In this document: positions 8,702-37,179 of the stretch, piece by piece | Position numbering within the stretch: position 1 is the first letter of the stretch | Layout of the letters: each line of letters begins with the position of its first letter | Assembly (NCBI GenBank): GCA_019429365.1 | Contig: JAHYJD010000021.1 | Location: 1 to 41,510 of the forward strand | Reading direction: 5' to 3' | DNA length: 41,510 bases | Source: Bacteroidales bacterium | GTDB taxonomy: Bacteria; Bacteroidota; Bacteroidia; Bacteroidales; UBA7960 | Position numbers and translations under genes: made by a program | The notes under the pieces: model-generated | Database searches by the model: none | The model's input: only the letters and a program-made list of their open reading frames with translations | Told to the model about the DNA's origin: nothing

Positions 8702-11700
8702 ATGGCTGGAAATTTTGATATTCTTCTTGAAAAACTCGACCGGTTTATCAGGCGATATTACCTTAATTTGTTGATTAAGGGGAGTTTGCTTTTTGGAGCA
8801 GGGTTTTTGCTTTTGTTTCTTGGTTTTTCGCTGCTCGAATATTTTGGCTATTTCGGCACCGGGGTGCGTTTTGTGCTTTTTTACGGATTTTTGCTTTTCA
8901 ATGTCCTTGTTTTAATTCGTTATGTGGCGAGGCCACTGGCTGGTTTTCTTAAAATCGGGAATAGAATAGATACGACTGACGCCGCACAAATTATTGGTAA
9001 GCATTTTAAGCATGAAATACGCGATAAAATTACCAATGCCCTGCAGCTCAGGCATTATATGGAAGAAAATGCCGAAAGCCGTGAACTGATAATGGCTGGT
9101 ATCGATCAAAAATCTTCTTTTGCCCTGAAGGTACCTTTTGCCGATGCCATTGACTTAAAAGGAAATAAAAAGTACCTGCCTTTTTTCCTGTTTCCGCTGG
9201 TTTTGATATTCGGTATTTTGCTTGTTAGGCCGGCTTTTGTGGTTGAACCCGCCAGTCGCATTGCCCGTTACGAAATGCATTTTGAGAAACCTGCTCCTTT
9301 TTCTTTTGCTTTTGAAGGCGATCTGCAGGGTTTTCAGGGTGAAAACCTGACCATCCTTGCGCGCAGTCAGGGTGCTATTTTACCTGCACAGGCAAATATT
9401 CGTTTTGGTGGGGCCGAATTTGCCATGGCTCCCGATGGCAAAGGGTTGTTTTCTTACCAAGCGCGTAATCTGCAGGAAGCATTTTCCTTTTTCATTGAAT
9501 CACAAGGATTTGTGTTTGGACCATTTGATGTGAAAGTATTACAAAAACCTGCTTTTAGCCATTTTTCTGTTAATGTGGAAAATCCTGGATATACACGCCT
9601 GGGCGAGCAGCAGTTCAGCAATATAGGTGATCTGATGGTGGCAGAAGGTTCAAATATTTTGTGGGAGTTTAATACCAGGGGTAGCGGTAAGGTAAGTTTT
9701 GGTTTGGAAGATCGGAATGCCGAAGTATCTGAAATCCGTCCTGGTGTTTTTCAGGTAAAGCAACGTGCATCTAAATCTTTTTCCTATCATGTTTTTGCGT
9801 GGAATGAAGAAGTTGGAAACGGCGATTCGCTTAATTATTTCGTACAGGTTAAACCAGATGCCTTTCCGCAAATTCAGATTGAGGAGCAACAGGATTCCGT
9901 GCTGATCTCTCATTTGTTCTTCCGCGGGCTAATCCAGGACGATTACGGCTTTAGTCTTCTTGAATTCAGGTATCGTATTGTAAATGAGCGTCAAAGGCGG
10001 TCAGGGGAGGAGGGTGACTTTCTTTCTGAGAAACTGGTTTTCGATCCCAATTCGCTCAACCAAACCTTTTATCATCACTTCGACCTTAATTCGGTCTATG
10101 TGAGCCCCGGCGAAACAGTTGAGTACTTCTTTATGGTTGCCGACAATGATGGCGTCAACGGGCCTAAAACAAGCCGTAGCAGGCTTTTTTCACTGTATAT
10201 CCCAAGTCAGGAAGAATTGCTTGCCCAGTCAAGGGAAAGCAATGAGCAGATGAAAGAAGAGATCAGCGCCGGTATTTCTGATGTAAGGCAATCGAGAAGA
10301 GAAATTGAGGAGATTCGTCGTCAGATGCTCGAATCGGAACGCATGGACTGGCAACAACGCGATGCCCTCGAAAATCTGCTTGAAAAGCAGCAGGAGGTTC
10401 AGCAAAATTTTGAACAACTCAATGAAATGAGGCAAAGAAACGAGCTGCGCGATGAACAATTTATGGAACAAAACGAAAGGATTCGGGAGAAACAGGAAGA
10501 ATTAAATCGCCTTTATGAAGAGGTTGTATCTGATGAACTTCGTGAACTTATGGAAAAGATTCGCGAGGAACTGGATAAAATGGATCGCGAACAAGTATAT
10601 GATATGCTGAACCAAATGGAATTTGAAATGGGGCAGCTTGAAAATCAAATGGATAGGGCGCTGGAATTCTTTAAACAACTGGAACTGGAACGTTTGCTTC
10701 AGCAAAGCATGGATATGCTTGATCAGGCCAAACTAGAGCAAGATGAAGTTATGGAAGATACTGGTTCCGGGAGCACTGATAATAATCAACTAATTGAAGA
10801 TCAGGAAGATATTAATAAAAAACTGGAAACCCTTAGTGATTTGCTTGAAGAATTCCGGGATAAGAATGAACAGCTTCAACGACCGCATCGTATCGACGAT
10901 ACAAGTGATATTGAAAACGCTATGAAGCAAGACCTTCAAAAGGCACTGGAGCAACTTCAGGAAGGACAACTGCAGCGATCACTTCAGAACCAGGAAGGTG
11001 GAAGGCAAAAAATGGATCAGCTCAGCATGCGCCTGCAAAGTATGCAGGAAAGAATGGGAGAGGAGCAGCTCGCTGAAGATGCCAGGGCTTTGCGAACCAT
11101 ACTTGAAAACCTGCTGAAAAGTAGTTTTTCGCAGGAAGAGCTGTTACTTGAAGTGCGCACCATCAACGTGAATGATCCGCGTTACGTTGAACTGATTCAG
11201 GAACAGCGTAAGATTCAGGAAGACCTGAAAATGATTGAAGATTCGCTAGTGGCCCTTAGCAAAAGGCAAATGGCCATTGGTTCATTTGTTAACCGCGAGA
11301 TTGGCGAAATTAACATGAACCTTGAAAGGGGTATGTTCGAACTGGTAAACCGCAGGCGTTTTCAAGGGGCCAGCCGACAACAATTTGTTATGACTCATAT
11401 TAACAATTTGGCACTTTTGCTTAATGAAAGCCTGCAAAATATGCAGATGCAAATGGCGGCCAATGCTGCCGGTGATCCGCAAAGCGATGGGCAATGCCAA
11501 TCGGGATTCCCTGGACTGAGGGAAATGCAGGAGCAACTCAATCAAATGCTTGAACAGTTGCAGCAAGGCCACCAACCCTTGCCTGGAGAATCCGGTCAGC
11601 CCATGTCAGTTAGTGAGCAACTTGCCCGCATGGCTGCTGAACAGGAAGCCATTCGCAACCAACTGAAAAGGCTAGCCGATGAGCTGAAGCAGGGCGGGGT

Positions 11701-12028
11701 GGATGGTAGTGGGCTCGATCAGCTTCAGCGCGACATGGAGCGCACAGAACTTGATATTGTTACCCGTAACATTACCCGGCAAACCATTCAGCGGCAGCAA
11801 CGAATTCTTACGCGCTTGCTCGAGCATGAGCAGGCGCAGCTGCAACGTGAGCAAGAAGAACGGCGCGAGGGTACTACTGCAAAAAATTACGAATTAAGTA
11901 ACCCTGCCGATGTTTTTGAGTATAATAGGATAAGAAACCGCGAATTGGAAATGCTCCGCAGTCTGCCTCCGGGCATGAAGCCTTTCTACCGGTCGCTTGT
12001 AGAAACCTATTTCCTTAACGTAGAATAA
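8702..12028 (+). CDS. DUF4175-family membrane protein with long coiled coil
   Basis: This 1108-residue protein is a common but uncharacterised Bacteroidota family. Three hydrophobic segments are visible at about 20-48, 54-76 and 153-175. Next comes a beta-rich extracytoplasmic part (about 180-490). From about 500 onwards there are long heptad-like helices very rich in Q, E, M, R and L, with blocks such as EQMKEEISAG and QLNQMLEQLQQ, and few charged breaks. The C-terminus returns to a short globular end (LPPGMKPFYRSLVETYF). The next gene starts 7 bases downstream, so it heads an operon with the HATPase-like gene, ybeY and mnmG. A structural or stress role at the membrane is possible, but I cannot assign one. 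Confidence 0.85.
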   Translation: MAGNFDILLEKLDRFIRRYYLNLLIKGSLLFGAGFLLLFLGFSLLEYFGYFGTGVRFVLFYGFLLFNVLVLIRYVARPLAGFLKIGNRIDTTDAAQIIGKHFKHEIRDKITNALQLRHYMEENAESRELIMAGIDQKSSFALKVPFADAIDLKGNKKYLPFFLFPLVLIFGILLVRPAFVVEPASRIARYEMHFEKPAPFSFAFEGDLQGFQGENLTILARSQGAILPAQANIRFGGAEFAMAPDGKGLFSYQARNLQEAFSFFIESQGFVFGPFDVKVLQKPAFSHFSVNVENPGYTRLGEQQFSNIGDLMVAEGSNILWEFNTRGSGKVSFGLEDRNAEVSEIRPGVFQVKQRASKSFSYHVFAWNEEVGNGDSLNYFVQVKPDAFPQIQIEEQQDSVLISHLFFRGLIQDDYGFSLLEFRYRIVNERQRRSGEEGDFLSEKLVFDPNSLNQTFYHHFDLNSVYVSPGETVEYFFMVADNDGVNGPKTSRSRLFSLYIPSQEELLAQSRESNEQMKEEISAGISDVRQSRREIEEIRRQMLESERMDWQQRDALENLLEKQQEVQQNFEQLNEMRQRNELRDEQFMEQNERIREKQEELNRLYEEVVSDELRELMEKIREELDKMDREQVYDMLNQMEFEMGQLENQMDRALEFFKQLELERLLQQSMDMLDQAKLEQDEVMEDTGSGSTDNNQLIEDQEDINKKLETLSDLLEEFRDKNEQLQRPHRIDDTSDIENAMKQDLQKALEQLQEGQLQRSLQNQEGGRQKMDQLSMRLQSMQERMGEEQLAEDARALRTILENLLKSSFSQEELLLEVRTINVNDPRYVELIQEQRKIQEDLKMIEDSLVALSKRQMAIGSFVNREIGEINMNLERGMFELVNRRRFQGASRQQFVMTHINNLALLLNESLQNMQMQMAANAAGDPQSDGQCQSGFPGLREMQEQLNQMLEQLQQGHQPLPGESGQPMSVSEQLARMAAEQEAIRNQLKRLADELKQGGVDGSGLDQLQRDMERTELDIVTRNITRQTIQRQQRILTRLLEHEQAQLQREQEERREGTTAKNYELSNPADVFEYNRIRNRELEMLRSLPPGMKPFYRSLVETYFLNVE

Positions 12029-15924: not shown

Positions 15925-18900
15925 GTGGACCTTTCCCGCCAAAAAATCTATCAAATGCAAGACTCCAGGCTCAGGATGGTTTACGGGCTGCTTTTGCTGG
16001 CACTGGTGGCACTGTTGCTGTCGGAGGTGACCTTTTACTTCCGTGGAAAAAAGATAGATACGGCCGCTGTAGCCTCAGATTTTCAGACCTCTTTTATCCA
16101 AAAGGAAATCCGGCTGAAGGAGTCGCTGCAGTGGTTGGTGTCGATAGCTTCCTCAAATGGTCCCGAACGCCTTACGGAAATTAACCTGGTGAACCTGCTC
16201 GAACCAAGGTTTGAGCGCGATGGACTTACCTATTATATTTTTTCTGCCGATTCACTCCTCTTCTGGTCGCACAATGCCATTCCCATTGGTGACAGCTGGC
16301 GTTGGCTGGAAACCAAAGGTTTGCTTCAGCTGCGCAACGGATGGTACTTCTATCGCACTGCGCAAGCCGGCGAGCTGAACATTGCCGTGTTTGCCACCAT
16401 CAAAACCAGCTTTAAATACCAGAACCGATTTCTGGTGAACGATTACCAACGGGATTTGCCCGTTTCCGGGAATATCTTTTTTATTTCTGACAAGGGTGGG
16501 CGGGGCTATGCCATCCTGGATAAAGACGACGATTTTGCTTTTTCGCTGGTGCCAAGGCGCGAAACCGGGCTTGTTGAGAGCCGTGCATGGATGTGGACGC
16601 TGGCCCTGGCCCTGGCATGTGCTGCCCTTATATTGTTTGTGTATTCGCTGTTCAGGCATTTTTCAAAGCGATTTCACGAGGGTAAGCGCTTGCTGGCACT
16701 GATGGCATTCCCTGCTGCAATGATTGGCCTCAGAGCCTTGCTTTTTTTGTCGGGCTTGCCCTCAGTGTTTTATTATGGCGAACTTTTTTCTCCGGCCCTT
16801 TACGCCACGTCTGCCATGCTTCCCTCACTGGGCGACCTGTTATTTAATGTACTGTTTTTCAGCATTATTGCCTACTTTCTGTTTACCCACCTTAAAGATT
16901 TTAAACTCAGCATTCAACAGAAAAAGCGAAGCCTTTTTGCCGCTTTTCTGCTGCTCTCGCTCATTGTGCTTCTTTGTTTGATGGCCATACAATTGATCCG
17001 TGGCCTGGTGATCGACTCCCGCCTTAATCTGGATGTGAATTTTATTTTCAGCCTCGATATTTACAGCATGGTGGGATTTCTGATCATTGCCAGCATCTTC
17101 TTCTCCTTCTTTTTTCTTGGAATGGTGCTTTTCCGGCTTATTTATCACCTGCTGCAAGGCAAAACAGACTTCTGGAAGCTCTACGTCGCTTCACTCGTGC
17201 TGTTTTTGCTGGCCGATATTTTCCTGGGAGGCTTTAATCTCCTGTTGTGGATGCTCTTTGGGGCGGCAACCCTGGTGTTTGAGCTGGAGCGCAGCCAGCC
17301 ACTCGCCCGCATGGGGTTTACTCCGCTGGTGATTGCCCTGTTTTTGTTCAGTATCATTTCTACTTTTGCCCTTTACCGCTTTAATGGCATAAAAGATAAG
17401 GAGAAGCGCAAAACCTTTGCCCTGAAGCTGGCCTCAGAGCAGGACCCGGTGGCCGAATATCTTTTTCTTGAAATAGAAGAAGCCCTTTATAACGATAATC
17501 AGCTCAAGAACCTGGTATTGCGCGATCCGTACAACGAAGCCGCCATTTACCAATACCTGCAGCACCATTATTTTTATGATTTCTGGGGAAAATACGACCT
17601 GCAGGTCACCGTTTGCGAGCCCGATGAAATACGGCTGATCCTTCCTGCGAACATCGAAATGGCTTGTTCTTGGATTTTCGACGACTATATCCGGTCCTTT
17701 GGAAAACCTACCATCAGCAAAAACCTCATTTACCTGGATAATAACACCGGGCGTAACAGCTATTTTGCCCGCATTATTGTGGAGGGTACTGAAACACACG
17801 ATCAGCAAGTGCTTTACCACGTTAACCTTGAATTTGATGCCAAGTTTGTGGCCCGCGACACTGGATTCCCCGAGCTGCTGATAGACGACAGGGTGGACAT
17901 CAACCGCGAGCTCGTTAACTATTCATACGCTACTTATAAAAGCGGAGAGCTGATCAATAAATTCGGACCCTATATTTACAGCATCGACCTTTCGGTCTAC
18001 GGGGAGTTCAACGAACAGTTCGTGTTTTTTGATTTCGACGATTATCAGCACATGGTGTATTCCAAGGACCAAGACACTCAGCTGATTATCAGCCGCCCGC
18101 GGCAAACTTTCCTGGAGGGCATTGCACCCTTTTCCTACCTGTTTTTGCTTTTCTTTTTGCTGATGGTGATATTTTCACTCCTGGCCAGCCGCCATGACCT
18201 GATGGAGTGGTTCCACCTCAATTTCAAACGGCGTGTACAGGTGTTTATGATCGGACTGGTAATCCTTTCAGTAATTACCATTGGCGGGGCTTCCACCTGG
18301 TTTATGGTCAATATTTACCAGAACAAAAACCTGTCGATCATTAACGAAAAATCGCACAGCGTACTGGTTGAAATGGAGCATTACCTGGCAGGGGAGGAGC
18401 ATCTGGGCGATATTTATGAATACTATTTGTCGGATTTGCTGCTGAAACTTTCCAATGTTTTCTTTACCGATATTAATCTTTACAATCCCGAAGGCGCCCT
18501 GATTGCCTCGAGCCGCCCCAGGGTGTTTGAGGAAGGCCTGGTGGGTTCGCAAATGAACCCTATTGCCTTTTCGCACTTGCGCACCCAGCAAAAAGGCCAG
18601 TTTGTGCATACCGAAAAAATCGGTAATCTCGAATATATTTCGGCTTATGTACCCCTGCGCAACAACAATCACGACTTGCTGGCTTATATTAACCTGCCCT
18701 ATTTTGCCAAGCAAAATGAACTGCGTAACGAGATTTCCTATTTTATGCTGGCCTTCGTCAACATCAACCTGTTGTTGCTGGTGTTTGCCGTGGTGCTGGC
18801 CTTGTTTATTTCCAATCACGTTACCCAGCCCCTGCAGCTAATCCGCGACAGCATTTCCAAGCTGCAGCTGGGCAAAACCGATCATAAGATTCAGTGGACC

Positions 18901-19674
18901 CGCAACGACGAGATCGGGCAGATGGTGAAGGAATACAACCGCATGATTGATGAACTTGCGGTGAGTGCCGACTTACTGGCACGAAGCGAACGTGAGTCGG
19001 CCTGGCGCGAAATGGCCAAACAGGTTGCACATGAAATTAAAAACCCGCTGACACCTATGCGCCTGAGTGTGCAGCACCTCGAAAAGGCCTGGAAAGAACA
19101 GGTGCCTGACTGGGACCAGCGCCTGCAGCGATTTACCAAAACCATGGTGGAACAAATCGACAGTCTATCGCTTATCGCCGGCGAATTTTCTGACTTTGCC
19201 AAGCTGCCGGCCGGAAAAAATGGCCCCATCAACCTGCGTGACTTTGTCCCTGAGGTACTTGACCTGTATACTGACCTTGAAAAAGTGGATGTGAAGCTGA
19301 AAATGCCCGATGGCGAGGAACCCCTGCTGGTATTTGCCGACAGAAACCAGCTGCTGAGGGTGTTCAACAATTTGTTGCGAAACTCAATTCAGGCCTACTC
19401 CAAAGACACTGTTGCCCGCATCCAGATCATTTGTGAAAGCGATGGACGGCTGATTACCTGCCACGTGAAAGACTTTGGCTGCGGCATCCCCAATGAGCTT
19501 AAATCGAACATCTTCAACCCCTATTTTACTACAAAAACCGGCGGCATGGGGCTGGGCCTTTCCATGGTGAAGAACATTATTGAAAACAACAAGGGGCAGG
19601 TGTTTTTCCGCTCGGAAGAAGGCAAAGGCACTACCTTTTCGTTCTTTCTGCCAGCCTTCCAACCCGAAGATTAA
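15925..19674 (+). CDS. Large membrane sensor histidine kinase (HAMP, NtrY-like)
   Basis: The protein has 1249 residues from a GTG start; an ATG 30 bases on (15955, MQDSRLRMVY) is a fair alternative. It has one N-terminal membrane helix with a sensor domain (about 40-210) and then a block of about seven or eight membrane helices (to about 480). A second extracytoplasmic region is followed by two further helices near 740-800, a further sensor region, a final helix (about 945-965), HAMP (about 967-1015), and the kinase with phospho-acceptor H1036 in QVAHEIKNPLTPMR. The ATP-binding part has NNLLRNSIQAY, DFGCGIP and TKTGGMGLGLSMV. No response regulator is adjacent. The septoil-knot-like gene follows 15 bases later. 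Confidence 0.92.
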   Translation: MDLSRQKIYQMQDSRLRMVYGLLLLALVALLLSEVTFYFRGKKIDTAAVASDFQTSFIQKEIRLKESLQWLVSIASSNGPERLTEINLVNLLEPRFERDGLTYYIFSADSLLFWSHNAIPIGDSWRWLETKGLLQLRNGWYFYRTAQAGELNIAVFATIKTSFKYQNRFLVNDYQRDLPVSGNIFFISDKGGRGYAILDKDDDFAFSLVPRRETGLVESRAWMWTLALALACAALILFVYSLFRHFSKRFHEGKRLLALMAFPAAMIGLRALLFLSGLPSVFYYGELFSPALYATSAMLPSLGDLLFNVLFFSIIAYFLFTHLKDFKLSIQQKKRSLFAAFLLLSLIVLLCLMAIQLIRGLVIDSRLNLDVNFIFSLDIYSMVGFLIIASIFFSFFFLGMVLFRLIYHLLQGKTDFWKLYVASLVLFLLADIFLGGFNLLLWMLFGAATLVFELERSQPLARMGFTPLVIALFLFSIISTFALYRFNGIKDKEKRKTFALKLASEQDPVAEYLFLEIEEALYNDNQLKNLVLRDPYNEAAIYQYLQHHYFYDFWGKYDLQVTVCEPDEIRLILPANIEMACSWIFDDYIRSFGKPTISKNLIYLDNNTGRNSYFARIIVEGTETHDQQVLYHVNLEFDAKFVARDTGFPELLIDDRVDINRELVNYSYATYKSGELINKFGPYIYSIDLSVYGEFNEQFVFFDFDDYQHMVYSKDQDTQLIISRPRQTFLEGIAPFSYLFLLFFLLMVIFSLLASRHDLMEWFHLNFKRRVQVFMIGLVILSVITIGGASTWFMVNIYQNKNLSIINEKSHSVLVEMEHYLAGEEHLGDIYEYYLSDLLLKLSNVFFTDINLYNPEGALIASSRPRVFEEGLVGSQMNPIAFSHLRTQQKGQFVHTEKIGNLEYISAYVPLRNNNHDLLAYINLPYFAKQNELRNEISYFMLAFVNINLLLLVFAVVLALFISNHVTQPLQLIRDSISKLQLGKTDHKIQWTRNDEIGQMVKEYNRMIDELAVSADLLARSERESAWREMAKQVAHEIKNPLTPMRLSVQHLEKAWKEQVPDWDQRLQRFTKTMVEQIDSLSLIAGEFSDFAKLPAGKNGPINLRDFVPEVLDLYTDLEKVDVKLKMPDGEEPLLVFADRNQLLRVFNNLLRNSIQAYSKDTVARIQIICESDGRLITCHVKDFGCGIPNELKSNIFNPYFTTKTGGMGLGLSMVKNIIENNKGQVFFRSEEGKGTTFSFFLPAFQPED

Positions 19675-19689
19675 AAGAAAGGAGGTTTT

Positions 19690-20019
19690 GTGAAAAAACT
19701 ACTGCTTTTAGGCTGTTTGCTCCTGCTGTACTGCCTGCCGGTGAGGGCGCAGAAGGTGTATGTGACCAAGTGGAAAAGCGAAGCCACCCATAAGGTGTAT
19801 GTCACCGAATGGAAGAGCGAGGCCAATGTGCTTGCTTACATAACTGAATGGAAGTCAGAAGCCAAGCCAAAATCTGGGCTTTGGTACTTTACCGAATGGA
19901 AAAGCGAAGCCGACATCATTATCTATTATACAGAATGGAAGAGTGAGGCTGACCTCCTGGTGTTCTTCACCCAATGGAAATCAGAAGCATCCTGGAAAAA
20001 AGATACCGGTAAAAAGTAA
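19690..20019 (+). CDS. Secreted six-repeat protein, septoil-knot (DUF6150)-like
   Basis: This 109-residue protein has a clear signal peptide (MKKLLLLGCLLLLYCLPVRA) and then six repeats that end in TEWKSEA (or TKWKSEA, TQWKSEA). Tryptophans lie at 28, 41, 54, 70, 83 and 96, a period of 13 residues with one 16-residue unit. A lysine-rich tail closes it. This pattern fits the family I remember as DUF6150 / 7(1) septoil knot, small domains with a deeply knotted fold; I could not check it. Function is unknown. A strong AAAGGAGG ribosome site 4 bases before the GTG start and the 15-base gap from the kinase gene suggest coexpression with it. Confidence 0.7.
   Translation: MKKLLLLGCLLLLYCLPVRAQKVYVTKWKSEATHKVYVTEWKSEANVLAYITEWKSEAKPKSGLWYFTEWKSEADIIIYYTEWKSEADLLVFFTQWKSEASWKKDTGKK
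19753..19989 (+). repeat. Six in-frame 13-residue WKSEA repeats
   Basis: Each unit codes for an aromatic/aliphatic strand followed by T-E/K/Q-WKSEA. The codons for KSEA differ between most units (AAA/AAG, AGC/TCA/AGT, GAA/GAG, GCC/GCT/GCA), so the repeats are old and conserved as protein, not recent DNA copies. Confidence 0.85.
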
Positions 20020-20039: not shown

Positions 20040-21116
20040 CTATTGATAAATTCGGGGCTCTACTTCGCCATTGTGAACCATCAGGCCGTTCATGGCCAGG
20101 GCACGCATTTCGTCTTCGCCCGGATACACAAATATAGGCGCAATGTGCTTCACCCTTTCCGAAACGGTTTCCACAAAAGGCTTTCCGTAGGCAATGCCGC
20201 CGGTAAGCAGTATGGCATCCACTTCGCCTTTTAGCACCGTGGACATGGCCCCGATTTCCTTGGCCACCTGGTAGGCCATGGCGTCTTGTATGAGTTGAGC
20301 CTTTTCGTCTCCCGCCTTTCCCATTTTTTCAACATTGTAGGCATCGTTGGTGCCCAGGTAGGCCACATAACCCCCTCTTCCGGTAATCATTTTTCTGATT
20401 TCCTCCTCGGTGTATTTTCCGCTAAAGCACAGTTTCACCAGGCTTCCCACTGGCAGGGTGCCGCTGCGTTCGGGCGAGAATGGGCCTTCGCCGTCAAGGG
20501 CCTGGTTCACATCAATTACGCGGCCTTTGTAGTGGGCTCCAACGCTGATTCCCCCGCCCAAATGCGCAATGATGAGGTTCAGCTCTTCGTAGTGCCGCGA
20601 AGTGGACTTGGCATGCTGCCGGGCAATGGCTTTTTGGTTCAGGGCATGAAAAATAGAGATACGCTCGAGCAATGGGTGCCCCGAGATGCGGGCAATGTGC
20701 TCCAGCTCATCGACTACCACCGGATCGGTAATATAGGCTTTCGCCGAGGGCAACGAATTGGCGATATCGTGGGCAATCAGTCCGCCCAGGTTGGAAGCGT
20801 GCTGCCCAAGGATACCAATTTTCAGGTCGTTTATCATCGCCTCGTTGATCTCGTAAACACCCGATGGAATGGGTTTAACCAATCCTCCCCGGCCAACCAC
20901 CAACACGATTTGGTTAATTTTTATTCCGGCTTCTTCCAGCTCTTTCAGGATGATGGCCTTGCGAAACTCGTACTGGTCGGTAATTTTTTTAAACCCGGCC
21001 AGGTCGTTACAAGAGTGTTTGATGTTTTTCAGGAAGATCTCTTTGGTGCTTCGGAAAACGGCAATTTTGGTGGATGTGGATCCGGGGTTAATGGCAAGAA
21101 TAAGTTCTCGGTCCAT
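20040..21116 (-). CDS. buk: Butyrate kinase
   Basis: This 358-residue enzyme of the acetate/butyrate kinase (ASKHA) family converts butyryl-phosphate plus ADP to butyrate plus ATP, the energy-yielding last step of butyrate or branched acid fermentation. ILAINPGSTSTKIAVF at 5-20 binds the phosphate, and IIAHLGGGISVGAHYKGRVID (about 187) and the ILLTGGIAYGKPFVE segment (about 305) are typical. Length is normal. It lies 23 bases after ptb in the same direction. Branched-chain carboxylates may also be substrates. Its stop is 20 bases from the end of the convergent repeat-protein gene. Confidence 0.94.
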   Translation of the reverse strand: MDRELILAINPGSTSTKIAVFRSTKEIFLKNIKHSCNDLAGFKKITDQYEFRKAIILKELEEAGIKINQIVLVVGRGGLVKPIPSGVYEINEAMINDLKIGILGQHASNLGGLIAHDIANSLPSAKAYITDPVVVDELEHIARISGHPLLERISIFHALNQKAIARQHAKSTSRHYEELNLIIAHLGGGISVGAHYKGRVIDVNQALDGEGPFSPERSGTLPVGSLVKLCFSGKYTEEEIRKMITGRGGYVAYLGTNDAYNVEKMGKAGDEKAQLIQDAMAYQVAKEIGAMSTVLKGEVDAILLTGGIAYGKPFVETVSERVKHIAPIFVYPGEDEMRALAMNGLMVHNGEVEPRIYQ

Positions 21117-21139
21117 GGAAGGGTTTGTGTTTTATGGGA

Positions 21140-22036
21140 TTAATTAATAGCCGCCGCCAGGGCAATGCTGTTGAGTTTGGTTTCGTCGGAGTCGGCCCTT
21201 GAAGTAAGCACAATGGGCGCAGAAGCCCCAAGGATAATGGCGGCGCATTTTGCCTTTGCAAAGTAGATAAAGGCTTTGTAGAGGGCGTTGGCAGCGTCGA
21301 GGTCGGAAGCCACCAGCAGGTCGGCATCGCCAGCCACTGGGCTGATTATGCCTTTATGCTCGGCGCTTTTTTTGCTGATAGCATTGTCGAAAGCCAGGGG
21401 CCCGTCGATGATACAGCCTTTGATCTGTCCGCGGTCGGCCATCTTGGCCAGGGCGCTGGCATCGAGGGTGCTTTTCATATCGGGGTTAACGGTTTCAACG
21501 GCGCTGAGCACGGCCACTTTGGGCGTTTCAATGCCCAGCTTGCGCATATAAGCGGTTGAACTCTTAATAAGGGAAGCTTTTCCGTTGAGGTCGGGGGCGA
21601 TGTTCATGGCGGCATCGGTCAGGCCAATGATCTTGTGATAGGTGGGCAACTCGAAAAGGGCCAGGTGCGAAATCAACTCTCCGGTGCGCAAGCCCCATTC
21701 CTTGTTCAACACCGCGCGCAGCAGGCTGGAGGTGGCCAGGTTGCCCTTCATCAATATGTCGGCCTCTTTGTCTTTTACCAGCTTTACGGCAATGGCGGCT
21801 GCCTTTTCGTTGTCGGGCTCGTCGATGATGCGAAACCCCTCCAGGCTGAACCCCTGCCGATGTGCAATTTCTTCGATTTTTGCCTTATTACCCACCATTA
21901 TGGCTTCTACAATTCCTTTTTTGCTGGCATTAACCACGGCTTCCAGGGCGTTTTCATCGTGGGCGGCGGCCAGTACCAGGCGCTTGGTGGCATGTGCATG
22001 GGCCATGTCCTGCAGTTCCGAAAGCTTCTTTAGCAT
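21140..22036 (-). CDS. ptb: Phosphate butyryltransferase
   Basis: This 298-residue phosphate acetyl/butyryl-transferase swaps CoA of butyryl-CoA for phosphate and hands butyryl-phosphate to Buk. Recognisable parts are KRLVLAAAHDENALEAV (about 18), the NKAKIEEIAHRQGF stretch, LMKGNLATSSLLRAVLNKEWGLR (about 95-118) and ISPVAGDADLLVASDLDAANALYKA (about 225-250). Length is right for Ptb and too short for a bifunctional enoyl-CoA hydratase fusion. It is the first gene of the ptb-buk pair. A TAATTTTG element lies about 40 bases before the start. Confidence 0.93.
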   Translation of the reverse strand: MLKKLSELQDMAHAHATKRLVLAAAHDENALEAVVNASKKGIVEAIMVGNKAKIEEIAHRQGFSLEGFRIIDEPDNEKAAAIAVKLVKDKEADILMKGNLATSSLLRAVLNKEWGLRTGELISHLALFELPTYHKIIGLTDAAMNIAPDLNGKASLIKSSTAYMRKLGIETPKVAVLSAVETVNPDMKSTLDASALAKMADRGQIKGCIIDGPLAFDNAISKKSAEHKGIISPVAGDADLLVASDLDAANALYKAFIYFAKAKCAAIILGASAPIVLTSRADSDETKLNSIALAAAIN

Positions 22037-22188: not shown

Positions 22189-22614
22189 TTAGGCAATCTC
22201 GATGCTGCGGCTCAGGCGGGCCTTTTCGGGCTCAAGCTTGGGAACGCTAACGAAAAGAATGCCATTTTCATAACGCGCGCTGATCTGCTCGGCATTGGTG
22301 GTTTTCGGAATGGTGAATGAACGGGTGAAGTTATCCAGCCCAAACTCGCGGCGAAGGTAGTGGTCTTCCTGCTTGTCTTCTTCCTTCTTTTCAAATGAAA
22401 CCGAAAGTACGCTGTTTTCTACCTGAAGACTGAAATCCTCTTTCTTCATGCCGGGGGCGGCCAGTTGAATCTCGAATTGCTTTTCGTCTTCGCGAATGTT
22501 GGTTGCGGGAGCGCAGCCACAGTTTTTCTCAAAACCGGTTGAATAATTACGCTCCAGCATTTCGTCGAGCATGCTCGAAAACATGGGGCGATTTTGCCAT
22601 CTGATAATTGTCAT
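22189..22614 (-). CDS. Hsp20/alpha-crystallin small heat-shock protein
   Basis: This 141-residue ATP-independent chaperone holds unfolding proteins. The alpha-crystallin domain covers about 43-141 and includes FEIQLAAPGMKKEDFSLQVENSVL and the conserved YENGILFVSVPKLE. The N-terminus (MTIIRWQNRPMFSSMLDEML) is typical of Bacteroidota members. It has an unusually good ribosome site for this phylum, AAGGAGG some 6 bases before the ATG. It stands alone, with its own terminator and a 274-base upstream region carrying inverted repeats. Confidence 0.95.
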   Translation of the reverse strand: MTIIRWQNRPMFSSMLDEMLERNYSTGFEKNCGCAPATNIREDEKQFEIQLAAPGMKKEDFSLQVENSVLSVSFEKKEEDKQEDHYLRREFGLDNFTRSFTIPKTTNAEQISARYENGILFVSVPKLEPEKARLSRSIEIA

Positions 22615-30884: not shown

Positions 30885-33800
30885 ATGAAAAAGAAAAAAC
30901 AAAGTTATTATTTGTCAAACATTCTGACATCCGGACCGCAAAGATTAAATGGTATGCTGTCAGGACTCATACTATTATTGATGGTATGTGTACTTCATAC
31001 CGGTGTTATGGCACAAGTCCCAAAGGTTAGTCTGGAAGCAAATGATGAATCAATGGAAAAGATTTTTCAGATGATTGAGAAATCTACCGGATATGAATTC
31101 TTCTTCCATCACGATCGACTTGATGTTTCCCGAAAAATGAACATTAAAGTAGTTAATCAGAATGTTGATGTGGTATTAAACCAGTTACTGCAAGATACAG
31201 GTAACAGCTTTCGTATCGTTGGCAATTATATATTAATTACCGCAAACGATGAAGTAAATAATAGCAGTAATTCTTTTGCCCAAACCAGAACCATAACCGG
31301 CCGGATAATTGATATATACGGTGATCCCTTACCGGGTGTAACCATAGTGATAAAAGGTACAACACAAGGTACAGTAACCAACTTTGATGGTTTTTACAGT
31401 TTGAGTGGAGTAACCGACGAAACTGTCCTTGTGATCTCGTTTATCGGAATGCTAACAGAAGAGGTAAAAGTTGGAAACCAATCCAGAATTGATATCTCAT
31501 TGAATTACGATTTACTTGGGCTTGATGAGGTAGTTGTAATTGGATACGGAACCCAGCGAAGAGGTAATATTACCAGTGCAGTAGCTGTAATTTCGGAGGA
31601 TGCCTTTACTTCAAGACCCAACTCGCAGTTTGGTAACCTGATTCAGGGAAAAGCCGCCGGTGTGCAGGTGCTTGCACCTTCGGGCAAGCCTTCGGCAGGC
31701 TTTAATATCAGGATAAGAGGAACCAGCTCAATATCAGCAGGGAGCGAACCATTGTATGTGGTAGACGGAATGCCTACCACCGATACCAGGGCTATTAACC
31801 CGGCTGATATCGAAAACATTACAATACTCAAGGATGCTGCTTCAGCCGCCATTTATGGCGCGCAGGGAGCCAATGGTGTGGTGCTTATTACTACACGCAG
31901 AGGCAAGGAAGGTGCTCCAAGGTTTGAACTCAGCTCCTATGTGGGTTTCTCTTCTGTATGGAGAACACTTGAGGTACTTAACAGCGAGCAATACCGGGAT
32001 CTGATGACAGAGCTTGGTCGCAACACGAACTGGAGTCTTTATAACGCAAATACCGACTGGCAGAATGAAATATTTAAAATGGGAATGTCGCAGAACTATC
32101 AATTCTCCGTTTCGGGAAGAAATGACCAAACCGGTTATTACCTGTCTGCAGGCTGGGTGGAGCAGGAAGGAGCTGTACGTAGCTCCAGTATGGATCGCTT
32201 TAACTTCAAGATGAATCTTGATCAGAAGGTCAATGAATGGCTGACATTTGGTTCCAACATCAGCTATTCCGATTACTTCGATGTGGATGTAAACGATAAC
32301 CAAGCTGTAAATCAGGGAGGTGTGATCCTTGGAATGTTATCTACACCCCCAAATATTGGTATTTACAACGAAGACGGAACATTTACCAGTAATCCGTTTC
32401 AGGATTGGGAGAACCCCGTTTCTTCAACCGATGGTTCGGAAAGAGGGTATAAAAGCCGGCGCCTGCTGGGAAATATTTTTTCTGAAGTAAACCTGTTTCC
32501 CGATCTGCAATGGCGTACCAACCTGGGGATTGAACATTCCAATTCAGCCTACAGCTATTTTCTGGATCCCTTCCGCACCAGCTATGGCCGTGCCAGGCAG
32601 GGCATAAGCCAGTACAATACCGATAATTATAACTTCTGGATACTGGAAAACCTGCTCACATACAGCCGGACTTTTAACGAACACTCTTTTTCCGCAATGG
32701 GAGGTGCCGTATTGCAAAAAAGCCAGTGGGAGAACAGTGCGATAGAAAGGATCGGATTTGCCAGCGATGCTATTATCACACCCAATGCAGGTGCTACCAT
32801 ACAGAATGCAACTGCATCGAAAGCAGAAAAAGCCAATGCATCTTTAATCAGCCGGTTTAATTACGACTATGCAAGCCGATATTTGTTAACAGCAAATTTT
32901 CGGGTTGATGGCTCATCATCCTTCGGACCAGGGAACCGATGGGGATATTTCCCCTCCTTTTCTGCCGGATGGCGTATTTCTGATGAAGAATTCATGCCCG
33001 AGTGGGACTTTCTGACCGACCTGAAGATTCGTGCCGGTTGGGGTATGGTGGGTAACGACAATATTCCCGGGTATGCATTCCTTGGAAGAGTGGGTGTGGG
33101 AGCCAACTACCCCATTGGAGGTGTTATCTTGCCAGGAACTTATCCCGCATCGATTGAAAACCGAAACCTTAAATGGGAGGCTACCGAGCAAACCAATATC
33201 GGTATGGACTTTACCTTCTTTGAGGCCAGATTGTTGTTTTCTGCTGATGCCTACATTAAAAACACTTCAGACTTATTGCTGTTTATTAATCTGCCGCATC
33301 TTACCGGTTTTTCAAACGGATTGCTCAACGTGGGTAAACTAGAAAACCGCGGTATTGAGTTTGAGATTTCTTCACGCAATTTTACACGCGATTTTATTTG
33401 GAATACTGACTTCAACATTTCCTTTAACCGCAATAAGGTAATTGATGTAGTAGGCCAGGAGATCATTGGTGGCAGTGTGGCCGGCAGAGGCGATGTGAGC
33501 TATTCAAGAGAGGGAGAGCCCCTGGGCCTGTTTTATGGTTACATAGCAGGTGGTGTTGATCCTGCAACCGGCATGATGTATTACATAAACCAAGACGGCG
33601 AAAGTGTATTTAACCCAACCCCGGAAGACAGAACCATCATTGGAGACCCTAATCCTGACTTTCTGTTTGGTTTGTCAAACAGTTTTGCCTACAGAAACTT
33701 CGATTTGTCTGTTTTTGTGCAAGGTTCTTACGGAAATGATATCTTTAACGCAACCCGCATAGAAACGGAAGGAATGTTAGATGCTAAAAACCAGAGTCGC

Positions 33801-34151
33801 ACAGTGCTCAACAGGTGGAGGGCGCCCGGTCAGGAAACAGACATACCCAGGGCTGTGGCAGATAATACAGACAATTCAATCCTTTCCACACGGTTTGTGG
33901 AAGATGGTTCTTATTTGCGGGTGAAATCAATTACCCTGGGCTATGAATTGCCCTCATCGGTAATACAAAAATTGAATATCAAAAACCTGAGATTCCATGT
34001 TTCGGCTGAGAACCTGCTGACATTTACCAACTATTCCGGTTATGATCCCGAGGTAAATGCCTTCGGCACCAGCAATATTGCCCTGGGTGTTGATTATGGT
34101 ACCTATCCGCATACGCGCAACCTCATCTTCGGTGTCAATGTTTCTTTCTAA
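30885..34151 (+). CDS. SusC/RagA-family TonB-linked outer-membrane protein with STN domain
   Basis: This 1088-residue glycan importer has a signal peptide to about residue 44 (VMAQ), an STN domain at 47-120 for signalling to FecR, a carboxypeptidase-regulatory-like domain at about 136-210, the DEVVVIGYGTQ motif at 214-224 at the TonB-box/plug junction, the plug (to about 345, ending with GVVLITTRRGK), and a 22-strand barrel ending in phenylalanine as outer-membrane proteins do. The STN domain is the mark of SusC proteins that work with an ECF sigma/anti-sigma pair, as here. SusD begins 40 bases downstream. Confidence 0.97.
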   Translation: MKKKKQSYYLSNILTSGPQRLNGMLSGLILLLMVCVLHTGVMAQVPKVSLEANDESMEKIFQMIEKSTGYEFFFHHDRLDVSRKMNIKVVNQNVDVVLNQLLQDTGNSFRIVGNYILITANDEVNNSSNSFAQTRTITGRIIDIYGDPLPGVTIVIKGTTQGTVTNFDGFYSLSGVTDETVLVISFIGMLTEEVKVGNQSRIDISLNYDLLGLDEVVVIGYGTQRRGNITSAVAVISEDAFTSRPNSQFGNLIQGKAAGVQVLAPSGKPSAGFNIRIRGTSSISAGSEPLYVVDGMPTTDTRAINPADIENITILKDAASAAIYGAQGANGVVLITTRRGKEGAPRFELSSYVGFSSVWRTLEVLNSEQYRDLMTELGRNTNWSLYNANTDWQNEIFKMGMSQNYQFSVSGRNDQTGYYLSAGWVEQEGAVRSSSMDRFNFKMNLDQKVNEWLTFGSNISYSDYFDVDVNDNQAVNQGGVILGMLSTPPNIGIYNEDGTFTSNPFQDWENPVSSTDGSERGYKSRRLLGNIFSEVNLFPDLQWRTNLGIEHSNSAYSYFLDPFRTSYGRARQGISQYNTDNYNFWILENLLTYSRTFNEHSFSAMGGAVLQKSQWENSAIERIGFASDAIITPNAGATIQNATASKAEKANASLISRFNYDYASRYLLTANFRVDGSSSFGPGNRWGYFPSFSAGWRISDEEFMPEWDFLTDLKIRAGWGMVGNDNIPGYAFLGRVGVGANYPIGGVILPGTYPASIENRNLKWEATEQTNIGMDFTFFEARLLFSADAYIKNTSDLLLFINLPHLTGFSNGLLNVGKLENRGIEFEISSRNFTRDFIWNTDFNISFNRNKVIDVVGQEIIGGSVAGRGDVSYSREGEPLGLFYGYIAGGVDPATGMMYYINQDGESVFNPTPEDRTIIGDPNPDFLFGLSNSFAYRNFDLSVFVQGSYGNDIFNATRIETEGMLDAKNQSRTVLNRWRAPGQETDIPRAVADNTDNSILSTRFVEDGSYLRVKSITLGYELPSSVIQKLNIKNLRFHVSAENLLTFTNYSGYDPEVNAFGTSNIALGVDYGTYPHTRNLIFGVNVSF

Positions 34152-34191
34152 TACCTGAAAGCCAGATATAAAAACTTTTAATATTATTGTT

Positions 34192-35676
34192 ATGCAAAAA
34201 GACAGAATATTCCAATTTATAGTCGCCATGAGCTTGGTAGTCTCATTCAGCTCCTGTGAAGACTTTTTGGATCTGAAACCCATATCAGAAGCTACTACAG
34301 CTAACGCCTACAGCACTGCCAATGATGCTGAAGCAGCACTTACAGGGCTGTACGACTCGTTCCAGTCAGAATATTACATTTGGGACAACATTATTTTCAA
34401 TGATGTGATATCCGATAATTATTATGCGGGGGGTGATAACCCTGAAATATTTGCCATTGCCGGCCTGAACCTATCGCCCACCAACAGCAGGTTATTCAAC
34501 AACTGGTCGCAGATATACAATGCCATAGCCAAGGCAAACACGGTTCTGGAAAAGGTACCTCAAATTGAAGACCCCAGGCTTGATTTGAATAACCGGAGAG
34601 AGCAGATACTGGCAGAAGCCGCTTTTTTAAGGGCATTCCATTATTATCAGCTTGTTAAAATGTGGGGTGGAGTGCCACTCGTAACCCGACCCATTAACTC
34701 ACTTGATCCTTCAGAAACCCATTTGCCGCGTAATACAGAAGATGAAGTATACCAGCAGATCATCACCGATCTCGAGTTTGCTCTTGAATGGCTCCCCGAT
34801 ACCTACAACAACAATGCAAGCCTGAATAAGGCCAGGGCCACGGCTGGTGCAGCCAATGCGCTCATGGCAACAGTTTATGCACAAAAGCCCGACAGGGACT
34901 ATACACAGGTTTTGCATTATTGCATACAAGTGGAAGAAAGTAGCGCCAATTACACATTATTATCCAACTTTGCCCACCTTTTTGATGGCAACCATTACAA
35001 CAATGCTGAATCCATAATGGAAGTGCAGTTTACCGGCGATACTGAAGCAAACTGGGGCCCCCAGCTCTTGCTTCCGCCTTCACTTACCGGTGACTCATGG
35101 AGAAAATTTGTTGTTCCCTCGGTTAACCTTGTCAATGCCTTTGATTCCGAAGGTGATGTTATCCGTAAAAATGCGAGCATTTTATGGGAAAGTGCACCAT
35201 GGGCCGATGAGTTCTGGCATAACACTGTGGGTAGCACTATTCCCTTTGCTTACAGATGGAAAAGTGCCAATGGATGGGCAAGCACTAACCGCCAGTATAT
35301 TTTCCGATTGGCCGATATCATTTTGCTGAAAGCCGAAGCCCTGAATGAACTGGGGCAGGTGGAGCAGGCTCGTGTAGAAATAAACAGGATTAGATCAAGG
35401 GTTAATCTTGGTCCTACTCCGGCAACAAACCAGCAGGAAATGAGAATGGCTATTTTGAATGAACGCAGACTTGAATTGTGCCAGGAAGCCAGAAGGTGGG
35501 ATGACCTCAGGAGAATGGATATGGCAGTTGATGTTATGAACAACCTTCAGGAGATCGATCTTCGCACCAATACAGTTGTAGACTTCAACATGACAGATTA
35601 CAAGAAGCTGCTTCCCATACCCCAGCAGGAACGAAACAGAAATCCCAACCTGTCGCAAAATCCAGGGTACAATTAA
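34192..35676 (+). CDS. SusD/RagB-family surface glycan-binding lipoprotein
   Basis: This 494-residue lipoprotein has lipobox FSSC (C22). It covers the mouth of the SusC barrel and gives it ligand. Family strings are FLDLKPISEATTANAYSTANDAEAALTGLYDSF near the start, the TPR-like AEAAFLRAFHYYQLVKMWGGVPLVTRPI (about 143-170), and the C-terminal NEIRLELCQEARRWDDLRR-like segment (NERRLELCQEARRWDDL, about 424-440). The end has LLPIPQQERNRNPNLSQNPGY. It is part of the SusC-SusD-GH30 operon, and the GH30 gene begins 21 bases on. Confidence 0.97.
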   Translation: MQKDRIFQFIVAMSLVVSFSSCEDFLDLKPISEATTANAYSTANDAEAALTGLYDSFQSEYYIWDNIIFNDVISDNYYAGGDNPEIFAIAGLNLSPTNSRLFNNWSQIYNAIAKANTVLEKVPQIEDPRLDLNNRREQILAEAAFLRAFHYYQLVKMWGGVPLVTRPINSLDPSETHLPRNTEDEVYQQIITDLEFALEWLPDTYNNNASLNKARATAGAANALMATVYAQKPDRDYTQVLHYCIQVEESSANYTLLSNFAHLFDGNHYNNAESIMEVQFTGDTEANWGPQLLLPPSLTGDSWRKFVVPSVNLVNAFDSEGDVIRKNASILWESAPWADEFWHNTVGSTIPFAYRWKSANGWASTNRQYIFRLADIILLKAEALNELGQVEQARVEINRIRSRVNLGPTPATNQQEMRMAILNERRLELCQEARRWDDLRRMDMAVDVMNNLQEIDLRTNTVVDFNMTDYKKLLPIPQQERNRNPNLSQNPGYN

Positions 35677-35697
35677 TACCGGTTAGTAAACTTTATT

Positions 35698-37179
35698 GTG
35701 TCGAAAAAACAGCAAATTAAAACCATGATTTGCAAGGGTTTATATAGTATAATTATTCTGATGGCATTAATTCTTACCAGTTGCTCAGATGACGAACCGG
35801 TATATATGCCACCAAAACCTCCGGTCACTGGTGTGGGGGAGGCTAAGGCATGGGTTACTACTGGAAATCGCAACCGTCTTTTACATCAGGAAGGTGATAT
35901 CATCATTTATGAAGGGCAGCAAACGGATCTGCCTTCCACCAGCATTGATTTTGATGAACTTTTCCAGGAAATGGAAGGATTCGGGGCTGCATTGACAGGC
36001 TCATCGGCCTGGCTTATTAACAGGCAAATGAGCAACGCGCAAAGCCAGCAGTTGCTCACCGATTTGTTTCATCCAGACAATGGAATAGGTGTGAGTTACC
36101 TGAGATTACCCATGGGGTCTTCTGATTTTTCTCTGTCCAATTACACCTACAACGACCTTTTACCCGGACAAAGTGACCCTGACCTTGAATTCTTTTCCAT
36201 TGCCCCTGACCGGCAGGATATAATTCCTGTTTTAAAAAGAATTCTGGAAATAAACCCGGAAATCAAAATTATGGGGAGCCCCTGGAGTGCACCCGCATGG
36301 ATGAAAACCAGCGGATCGCTCATGGGTGGAAAACTTAAAGAAGAATGGTATGAAACCTATGCTCTTTACTTTGTAAAGTTTATCCAGGCCTATGCCCTGG
36401 AAGGAATACCCATTGATGCTATTACACCTCAGAATGAGCCTTTACATGAAAGCTCAGGTTATCCAACCATGCGAATGGAGGCCCATGAGCAGAATGTTTT
36501 TATCAGAGATCATCTGGGGCCTCTTTTCATTGAGCATGGCATTACCACCAAAATCATTATTTATGATCACAACTGGGACAGGTTTGACTATCCCATTGAG
36601 ATACTGAATGACCCTGTTACACGTGATTACGTCGAAGGTTCTGCCTTTCATGCATATGGAGGAAGTGTAAGTGCTATGTCGCAGGTTCATGCAACACATC
36701 CCGACAAGGGGCTCTATTTTACAGAGATATCGGGAGGAGGATGGGCAACCGATTTTTCCGATAATCTTAAATGGAATATGTCGAACATTTTTATTGGTAC
36801 AGCAAATCATTGGTCGAAAAATGCCTTGCTGTGGAACCTTGCCCTTGATCAAAACGATGGCCCCACCAACGGTGGTTGCCAGAATTGCCGGGGTGTGGTA
36901 ACCATATTGCCCGGAGGCAATGTTGAACGAAACGAAGAATATTATGCCCTGGGCCATATGTCGAAATTTATAAAACCAGGAGCACGCCGGGCCGCATCAA
37001 CGGGTTTCCCATCTTCCGAAAATCTGGAAAGCGTGGCATTTGTTAATCCTGACGATTCAAAAGTGTTGGTGGTGCTTAACAGCAACACCAGCCCAAAATC
37101 TTTTGCCGTAAATTTTGATGATAAAATTTTTGAATACAGAATTGACGGTAATGCCGTTGCCACAATTGTATGGGAGTAA
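35698..37179 (+). CDS. GH30 glycoside hydrolase lipoprotein, first copy
   Basis: The protein has 493 residues from a GTG start, or 484 from the ATG at 35725. A lipoprotein signal is visible with lipobox LTSC (C29). The GH30 TIM barrel has EGFGAALTGSSAWLI near the start, MGSPWSAPAWMKT, acid/base E247 in TPQNEPLH and nucleophile E343 in YFTEISGG; a beta-sandwich follows. GH30 enzymes include endo-beta-1,6-glucanases (GH30_3), beta-glucosidases and glucosylceramidases; the locus favours beta-1,6-glucan. It has 21 bases to SusD. The second GH30 in the locus is a clear paralogue. Confidence 0.9.
   Translation: MSKKQQIKTMICKGLYSIIILMALILTSCSDDEPVYMPPKPPVTGVGEAKAWVTTGNRNRLLHQEGDIIIYEGQQTDLPSTSIDFDELFQEMEGFGAALTGSSAWLINRQMSNAQSQQLLTDLFHPDNGIGVSYLRLPMGSSDFSLSNYTYNDLLPGQSDPDLEFFSIAPDRQDIIPVLKRILEINPEIKIMGSPWSAPAWMKTSGSLMGGKLKEEWYETYALYFVKFIQAYALEGIPIDAITPQNEPLHESSGYPTMRMEAHEQNVFIRDHLGPLFIEHGITTKIIIYDHNWDRFDYPIEILNDPVTRDYVEGSAFHAYGGSVSAMSQVHATHPDKGLYFTEISGGGWATDFSDNLKWNMSNIFIGTANHWSKNALLWNLALDQNDGPTNGGCQNCRGVVTILPGGNVERNEEYYALGHMSKFIKPGARRAASTGFPSSENLESVAFVNPDDSKVLVVLNSNTSPKSFAVNFDDKIFEYRIDGNAVATIVWE

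What the first reader, a model, noticed from the sequence alone, without database searches (positions are those of the whole stretch)
19690..20019. Six-repeat WKSEA secreted protein beside a giant histidine kinase
The 109-residue protein is a signal peptide plus six 13-residue units ending in T-E/K/Q-WKSEA. The codons differ between units, so selection keeps the amino acids. It resembles, as I recall, the DUF6150/7(1) septoil-knot family, whose biological role is unknown. It follows the 1249-residue kinase after 15 bases with its own strong ribosome site, which hints that it may be a ligand or cofactor of that sensor.
Basis: partly seen in the sequence, partly recalled or inferred. Interest (0 to 1): 0.66.

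Follow-up and report, generated by a model that had tools for sequence, protein, structure and literature searches.

The report
Secreted six-repeat protein, knotted-fold family
This is a small exported bacterial protein from a family related by sequence to the most complex knotted protein solved so far; each family member repeats one short motif six times and has changed all six copies together during evolution, while the neighbouring sensor kinase does not need it.

Summary
In detail: a 109-residue ORF (GTG 19690-20019) with a signal peptide and six perfect WKSEA units whose codons differ. It is a DUF6150 member (PF19647, 55 bits, cut-off 27). I found a sequence bridge to the solved 7_1 knot: L273 matches both DUF6150 (2.2e-9) and PDB 8IWA (2.2e-9). 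The knot itself was not tested; AlphaFold2 failed twice on shallow alignments. The kinase-ligand idea is not supported: the kinase occurs in 119 of 147 relatives, DUF6150 in 50; in 12 genomes of the same family the kinase abuts buk-ptb without DUF6150, and the pairing was gained or lost at least four times. The unexpected result is at family level. In 126 members, signature positions (-4,-2,-1) are 86-93% identical among the six repeats of one protein but 28-36% between proteins, while neighbouring residues show the reverse. Thirty regular signatures occur (WKSE, YESQ, SKYD, ADYK, TESW and others). Codons are nearly randomised, so selection rather than recent DNA homogenisation keeps the copies alike. 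Best reading: signature residues of successive repeats pack against each other in a closed knotted ring and must change together. A six-site ligand binder remains a strong rival. New member of a known kind.

The parts
19690..20019 (+). DUF6150 gene, 109 aa, GTG start
   Evidence: ORF; PF19647 6.8e-15, 55.3 bits, cut-off 27; only copy in the genome
19678..19685 (+). ribosome-binding site AAAGGAGG, 4 bases before GTG
   Evidence: sequence; same in L032
19690..19749 (+). signal peptide MKKLLLLGCLLLLYCLPVRA, predicted SPase I cleavage before Q21 (Bacteroidetes Q-rule)
   Evidence: sequence; Q invariant in a 22-member family alignment; Q-rule PMC5837995, PMC10653852; cleavage inferred
19771..19785 (+). 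signature unit 1 WKSEA
19810..19824 (+). signature unit 2 WKSEA
19849..19863 (+). signature unit 3 WKSEA (followed by a linker 3 residues longer, with GLWYF)
19897..19911 (+). signature unit 4 WKSEA
19936..19950 (+). signature unit 5 WKSEA
19975..19989 (+). signature unit 6 WKSEA
15925..19674 (+). 1249-aa histidine kinase (HAMP 961-1011, HisKA 1027-1097, HATPase_c 1139-1244); conserved neighbour, not a required partner
20040..21116 (-). butyrate kinase (buk), convergent downstream neighbour
   Evidence: TIGR02707 3.7e-160
21140..22036 (-). phosphate butyryltransferase (ptb)
   Evidence: synteny

Best explanation
The gene encodes a DUF6150 protein, exported through Sec/signal peptidase I and probably capped with pyroglutamate at Q21, homologous to the 7_1-knotted UU089.1 (8IWA). 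Each repeat is one strand ending in a signature corner (WKSE-A). I propose that side chains of the signature in one repeat pack against those of the next (aromatic against small residue; charge against opposite charge or amide), closing a stiff, protease-resistant knotted ring. A change in one repeat then only works if the others follow, so all six change together and each protein settles on one signature. The mature protein works in the cell envelope as a very stable small scaffold or binder. Its position behind the kinase is an inherited slot that has been lost repeatedly without the kinase, not a sensor-ligand pair. Shown: family membership, sequence link to 8IWA, signal-peptide pattern, concerted signatures with randomised codons, dispensability of the gene for keeping the kinase. 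Inferred: fold and knot of this member, inter-repeat packing, stability, envelope role.
For: DUF6150 match. Bridge L273: DUF6150 37.6 bits and 8IWA 2.2e-9; hhalign of the WKSEA alignment with L273 gives 96% probability and lines up the WKSEA-D corners with the SFPD corners, and the stretches of 8IWA shown hold several SFPD units. Concerted signatures in 126 proteins: positions -4/-2/-1 within-protein identity .86/.93/.89, between-protein .28/.36/.28; flanks -7/+1/+2 reversed.19/.32/.08 within against .62/.59/.54 between, so whole-unit re-amplification is excluded. Aligned-codon identity .543 against .513 shuffled. 40 signature changes on a tree built without those columns (23 in the 54-protein set). 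All 30 regular signatures hold an aromatic (F, W, Y or H); none has like charges at -3/-1 (4.8 expected, P=0.0009). Envelope: signal peptide and Q-rule; relatives fused to an OmpA domain (PF00691 1e-15).
Against: No structure for this branch: AlphaFold2 pLDDT 42 and 32. Charge complementarity loses significance when signatures are pooled into 12 chemical classes (P=0.11). Packing and ligand binding both predict concerted change. A small excess of identical codons (.03) leaves room for some very short or old conversion. Some relatives lack a signal peptide (L072, L273), so an envelope role is not family-wide.
Confidence: 0.45

Rival explanations
1. Multivalent binder: six equal surface sites, each an aromatic plus charged or polar tetrad, bind a repetitive envelope ligand (glycan, peptidoglycan, capsule). 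Lineages and paralogs retune all sites together when the ligand changes.
For: Every regular signature has an aromatic residue plus polar or charged ones; 27 of 29 paralog pairs within 20 genomes differ in signature, for example WKSE, ADYK and SKYD in G800; export; fusions to OmpA, weak SH3_3 and weak SPOR.
Against: Paralogs are no more different than random pairs (2 of 29 same, background 0.076). The size and charge pairing inside the signature is expected for packing. No conserved partner gene.
Confidence: 0.3
2. Ligand or cofactor of the adjacent 1249-residue histidine kinase.
For: Same strand, short gap and own ribosome site; next to the kinase in all 12 genomes of its family that have the copy in this slot, and in the syntenic loci L032-L039.
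Against: The same kinase sits directly against buk without DUF6150 in 12 genomes of the family; at least 4 gains or losses on the kinase tree; never adjacent in other families though both genes occur; WKSEA types in Ignavibacteria and Chitinophagales lie in other neighbourhoods. The whole block is syntenic, so adjacency adds little.
Confidence: 0.08
3. Concerted evolution by DNA exchange (gene conversion or slippage) among the repeats, without functional coupling.
For: Slight excess of identical codons at aligned signature positions (.543 against .513).
Against: Flanking residues 1-3 positions away stay repeat-specific across the family, so tracts would have to be about 12 bases; codons near random; Ser AGY and TCN codons mixed in 15 of 31 proteins; pN 0 at WKSEA with pS 0.67-0.90 against the orthologs L033, L034 and L037.
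Confidence: 0.1

Closest known systems
DUF6150 (Pfam PF19647)
   Same: Near full-length match, 55 bits, cut-off 27; six repeats, W after repeat 3, signal peptide
   Different: WKSE signature branch lacks the C-terminal SKxHLLY tail common in other members
UU089.1 / Q9PR55 of Ureaplasma, PDB 8IWA, the 7_1 (septafoil torus) knot (PMC9278004, PMC13352647)
   Same: Homologous through bridging sequence L273; repeated corner motif SFPD lines up with WKSE-A; similar repeat-domain size
   Different: No direct detectable match to the window protein or to DUF6150 profiles A1-A3; its SFPD repeats have an 11-residue spacing, not 13; knot of this member not tested; homolog P73136 is predicted 5_1, so topology can differ within the family (PMC9278004)
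Paired sensor kinase and periplasmic accessory protein
   Same: Adjacent, same strand, exported
   Different: Partner dispensable and absent in most kinase-bearing genomes

Membership tests
DUF6150 (PF19647) | Pfam model score above the gathering cut-off | tested here: met
   55.3 bits against 27, residues 15-104, model 3-91/98
DUF6150 (PF19647) | six repeats with a common motif ending in conserved A | tested here: met
7_1 septafoil-knot family (8IWA) | sequence homology to 8IWA | tested here: met
   indirect, by bridge L273; direct search negative
7_1 septafoil-knot family (8IWA) | knotted backbone with seven crossings | tested here: inconclusive
   AlphaFold2 gave no usable model, pLDDT 42 and 32; no fold search made on them
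Bacteroidetes Q-rule SPase I substrate | signal peptide with Q as first mature residue | tested here: met
   VRA|Q at 20/21, Q invariant in A2; cleavage itself not tested
Ligand/cofactor of the adjacent histidine kinase | co-occurrence and retained adjacency across genomes | tested here: not met
Ligand/cofactor of the adjacent histidine kinase | physical binding or effect on kinase output | not testable with these tools
   needs experiment

The most novel reading that the evidence does not exclude
DUF6150/septafoil-knot proteins carry an interchangeable code: a 4-residue signature that is kept alike in all six repeats and has been swapped as a set dozens of times, giving at least 30 distinct versions, several coexisting in one cell. 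The code either locks successive repeats of a knotted ring together or sets the specificity of six identical binding sites. Either would be a clear case of within-protein concerted evolution driven by selection rather than DNA exchange.
Probability: 0.4. Interest if true: 0.75.

Novelty: new member of a known kind. Interest (0 to 1): 0.55.

Why it matters
The most complex protein knot known has, as far as I know, no assigned function. The signature code ties that fold to a mostly exported Bacteroidota family with a measurable, testable rule (all repeats change together), offers natural variants for folding and binding tests, and shows that the kinase next door is a false lead. It would also be a clean model for selection-driven concerted change inside one protein.

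Tried and rejected
AlphaFold2 on 16 and 17 relatives gave no usable model, so no fold search was made. PDB searches with the window protein, with an ad hoc consensus-like sequence of my own and with profiles A1-A3 found nothing, nor did two other relatives; only divergent relatives reached 8IWA. Plasmid and phage records: no real match. Viral contigs: one member. Neighbour survey of 68 loci found no recurrent partner; the most frequent gene family is histidine kinase-like, in 11 loci at varied positions, not compared with a background rate. Paralog signatures are not more different than chance. The JBC 2024 paper on 8IWA is not held. PHROGs: no match for the window protein; NCBIfam: none for it.

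Full report
Observation. The ORF at 19690-20019 (+) is real: 109 residues, GTG start, AAAGGAGG at 19678-19685, 15 bases after the kinase stop. Six WKSEA units are spaced 13, 13, 16, 13, 13. Codons vary (K AAA/AAG, S AGC/AGT/TCA, E GAA/GAG, A GCC/GCT/GCA). Against the orthologs L033, L034 and L037 the WKSEA codons show pS 0.67-0.90 and pN 0.00, against pN 0.17-0.19 in the rest of the mature protein; more distant relatives show pN 0.06-0.15 at these codons. The N-terminus reads MKKLLLLGCLLLLYCLPVRA|Q. Q is invariant across a 22-member family alignment and fits the Bacteroidetes Q-rule, by which signal peptidase I exposes a Q that is turned into pyroglutamate (PMC5837995, PMC10653852).

Identity. 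Pfam gives DUF6150 at 55 bits. The genome holds one copy. The family occurs in 50 of 147 relatives, 105 of 393 genomes of the order and 20 of 395 across the phylum.

Knot link. Direct PDB searches with the window protein and with three profiles failed. Two divergent relatives connect the families. L273 (87 aa) is over the DUF6150 cut-off (37.6 bits) and hits 8IWA, UU089.1, at 2.2e-9. L266:396-737, which itself has no Pfam match, has 8IWA as its best PDB match, at 0.017. hhalign of the WKSEA alignment with L273 gives 96% probability over 62 columns and lines up SFPD corners with WKSEAD corners, each two residues shorter. 8IWA is the experimentally confirmed 7_1 knot (PMC13352647; PMC11223836), first predicted in PMC9278004, where a homolog is predicted 5_1. 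The knot of this member was not testable: AlphaFold2 gave pLDDT 42 and 32.

Kinase. The upstream protein is a 1249-aa HAMP-HisKA-HATPase kinase whose sensor part is found in 119 of 147 relatives. Within the window's family the order kinase - (DUF6150) - buk - ptb is syntenic. Twelve members (the window's genome included) have DUF6150 in the slot and twelve others have kinase and buk tail to tail with nothing between. The kinase tree needs 5 changes of state, at least 4 forced by starred branches. In 15 genomes of other families the sequence after the kinase has neither buk nor DUF6150. Elsewhere DUF6150 neighbourhoods are mixed. The sensor-ligand reading is therefore not supported.

Concerted signatures. 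Aligning the six units of 126 family members: positions -4, -2 and -1 before the conserved alanine are 86, 93 and 89% identical among repeats of the same protein, but 28, 36 and 28% between proteins at the same repeat. Positions -7, +1 and +2 are the reverse (19, 32, 8% within; 62, 59, 54% between). So the six repeats kept their own identities since the common ancestor while the signature was changed in all six. 98 of 126 proteins have all three positions alike in at least 5 of 6 repeats; these show 30 signatures. On a tree built without the signature columns, 40 changes are needed (23 in the first set of 54). Many forks are unresolved, so the exact number is soft, but YKSE nested inside the WKSE clade (starred 99/92) and YDYQ beside YESQ (98/88) are supported. 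Aligned synonymous codons are 54.3% identical against 51.3% when shuffled within genes, and serine AGY and TCN codons are mixed in 15 of 31 proteins, so recent DNA homogenisation is not the cause. Paralogs in one genome carry different signatures in 27 of 29 pairs, for example WKSE, ADYK and SKYD in G800 and YKSD beside SKYD in tandem in G694; this is no more than the background.

Mechanism (inference). In a strand, -4, -2 and 0 would face one side. The aromatic sits at -4 with a small or polar residue at -2, or at -2 with a non-aromatic at -4, or at -1 with both small; seven signatures have Y or H at both -4 and -2. -3 and -1 never carry like charges (0 against 4.8 expected, P=0.0009 on distinct signatures; P=0.11 on pooled classes). 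This looks like packing between neighbouring repeats of a closed ring, which would force joint change. A six-site binder fits nearly as well; fusions to an OmpA domain (PF00691) and, below cut-off, SH3_3 and SPOR point to the envelope.

Verdict. Known family, real and well conserved protein; sequence kinship to the 7_1 knot supported; kinase link not supported; an unexpected family-wide signature code that I did not find described in the held literature (the key paper on 8IWA is not held).

Noticed in passing
L076 4974-5300 (IMGVR_UViG_3300036774_000066, 156.6 kb): A contig of the viral collection carries a signal-peptide DUF6150 gene directly before a DnaX-like clamp-loader gene, so the family may also travel in phages; its repeats are less uniform.
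   Followed up: partly
L263 981-2174 and L264 804-2027: A divergent DUF6150 branch (TVIEMTHPxDA type) is fused to a C-terminal OmpA domain, with a tandem neighbour that has a weak SPOR-like C-terminus.
   Followed up: partly
L072 982-1701: Member without signal peptide from another order of the class: five AYEA-type repeats, serine-rich linker, a likely transmembrane helix and an SH3_3-like domain.
   Followed up: no
L211 1495-2321: Tandem DUF6150 paralogs with different uniform signatures (YKSD x6 next to SKYD x6).
   Followed up: partly
window 20040-22036: ptb-buk pair (phosphate butyryltransferase, butyrate kinase), convergent with the kinase through most of the family, next to an Hsp20 gene (22189-22614).
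   Followed up: no
window 30885-37179: SusC/SusD-like pair followed by a GH30 glycosidase: a small polysaccharide-utilisation locus.
   Followed up: no
window 8702-12028: 1108-aa protein without any Pfam match (E up to 1e-6), upstream of ybeY and gidA/mnmG and conserved in L032 and L034.
   Followed up: no
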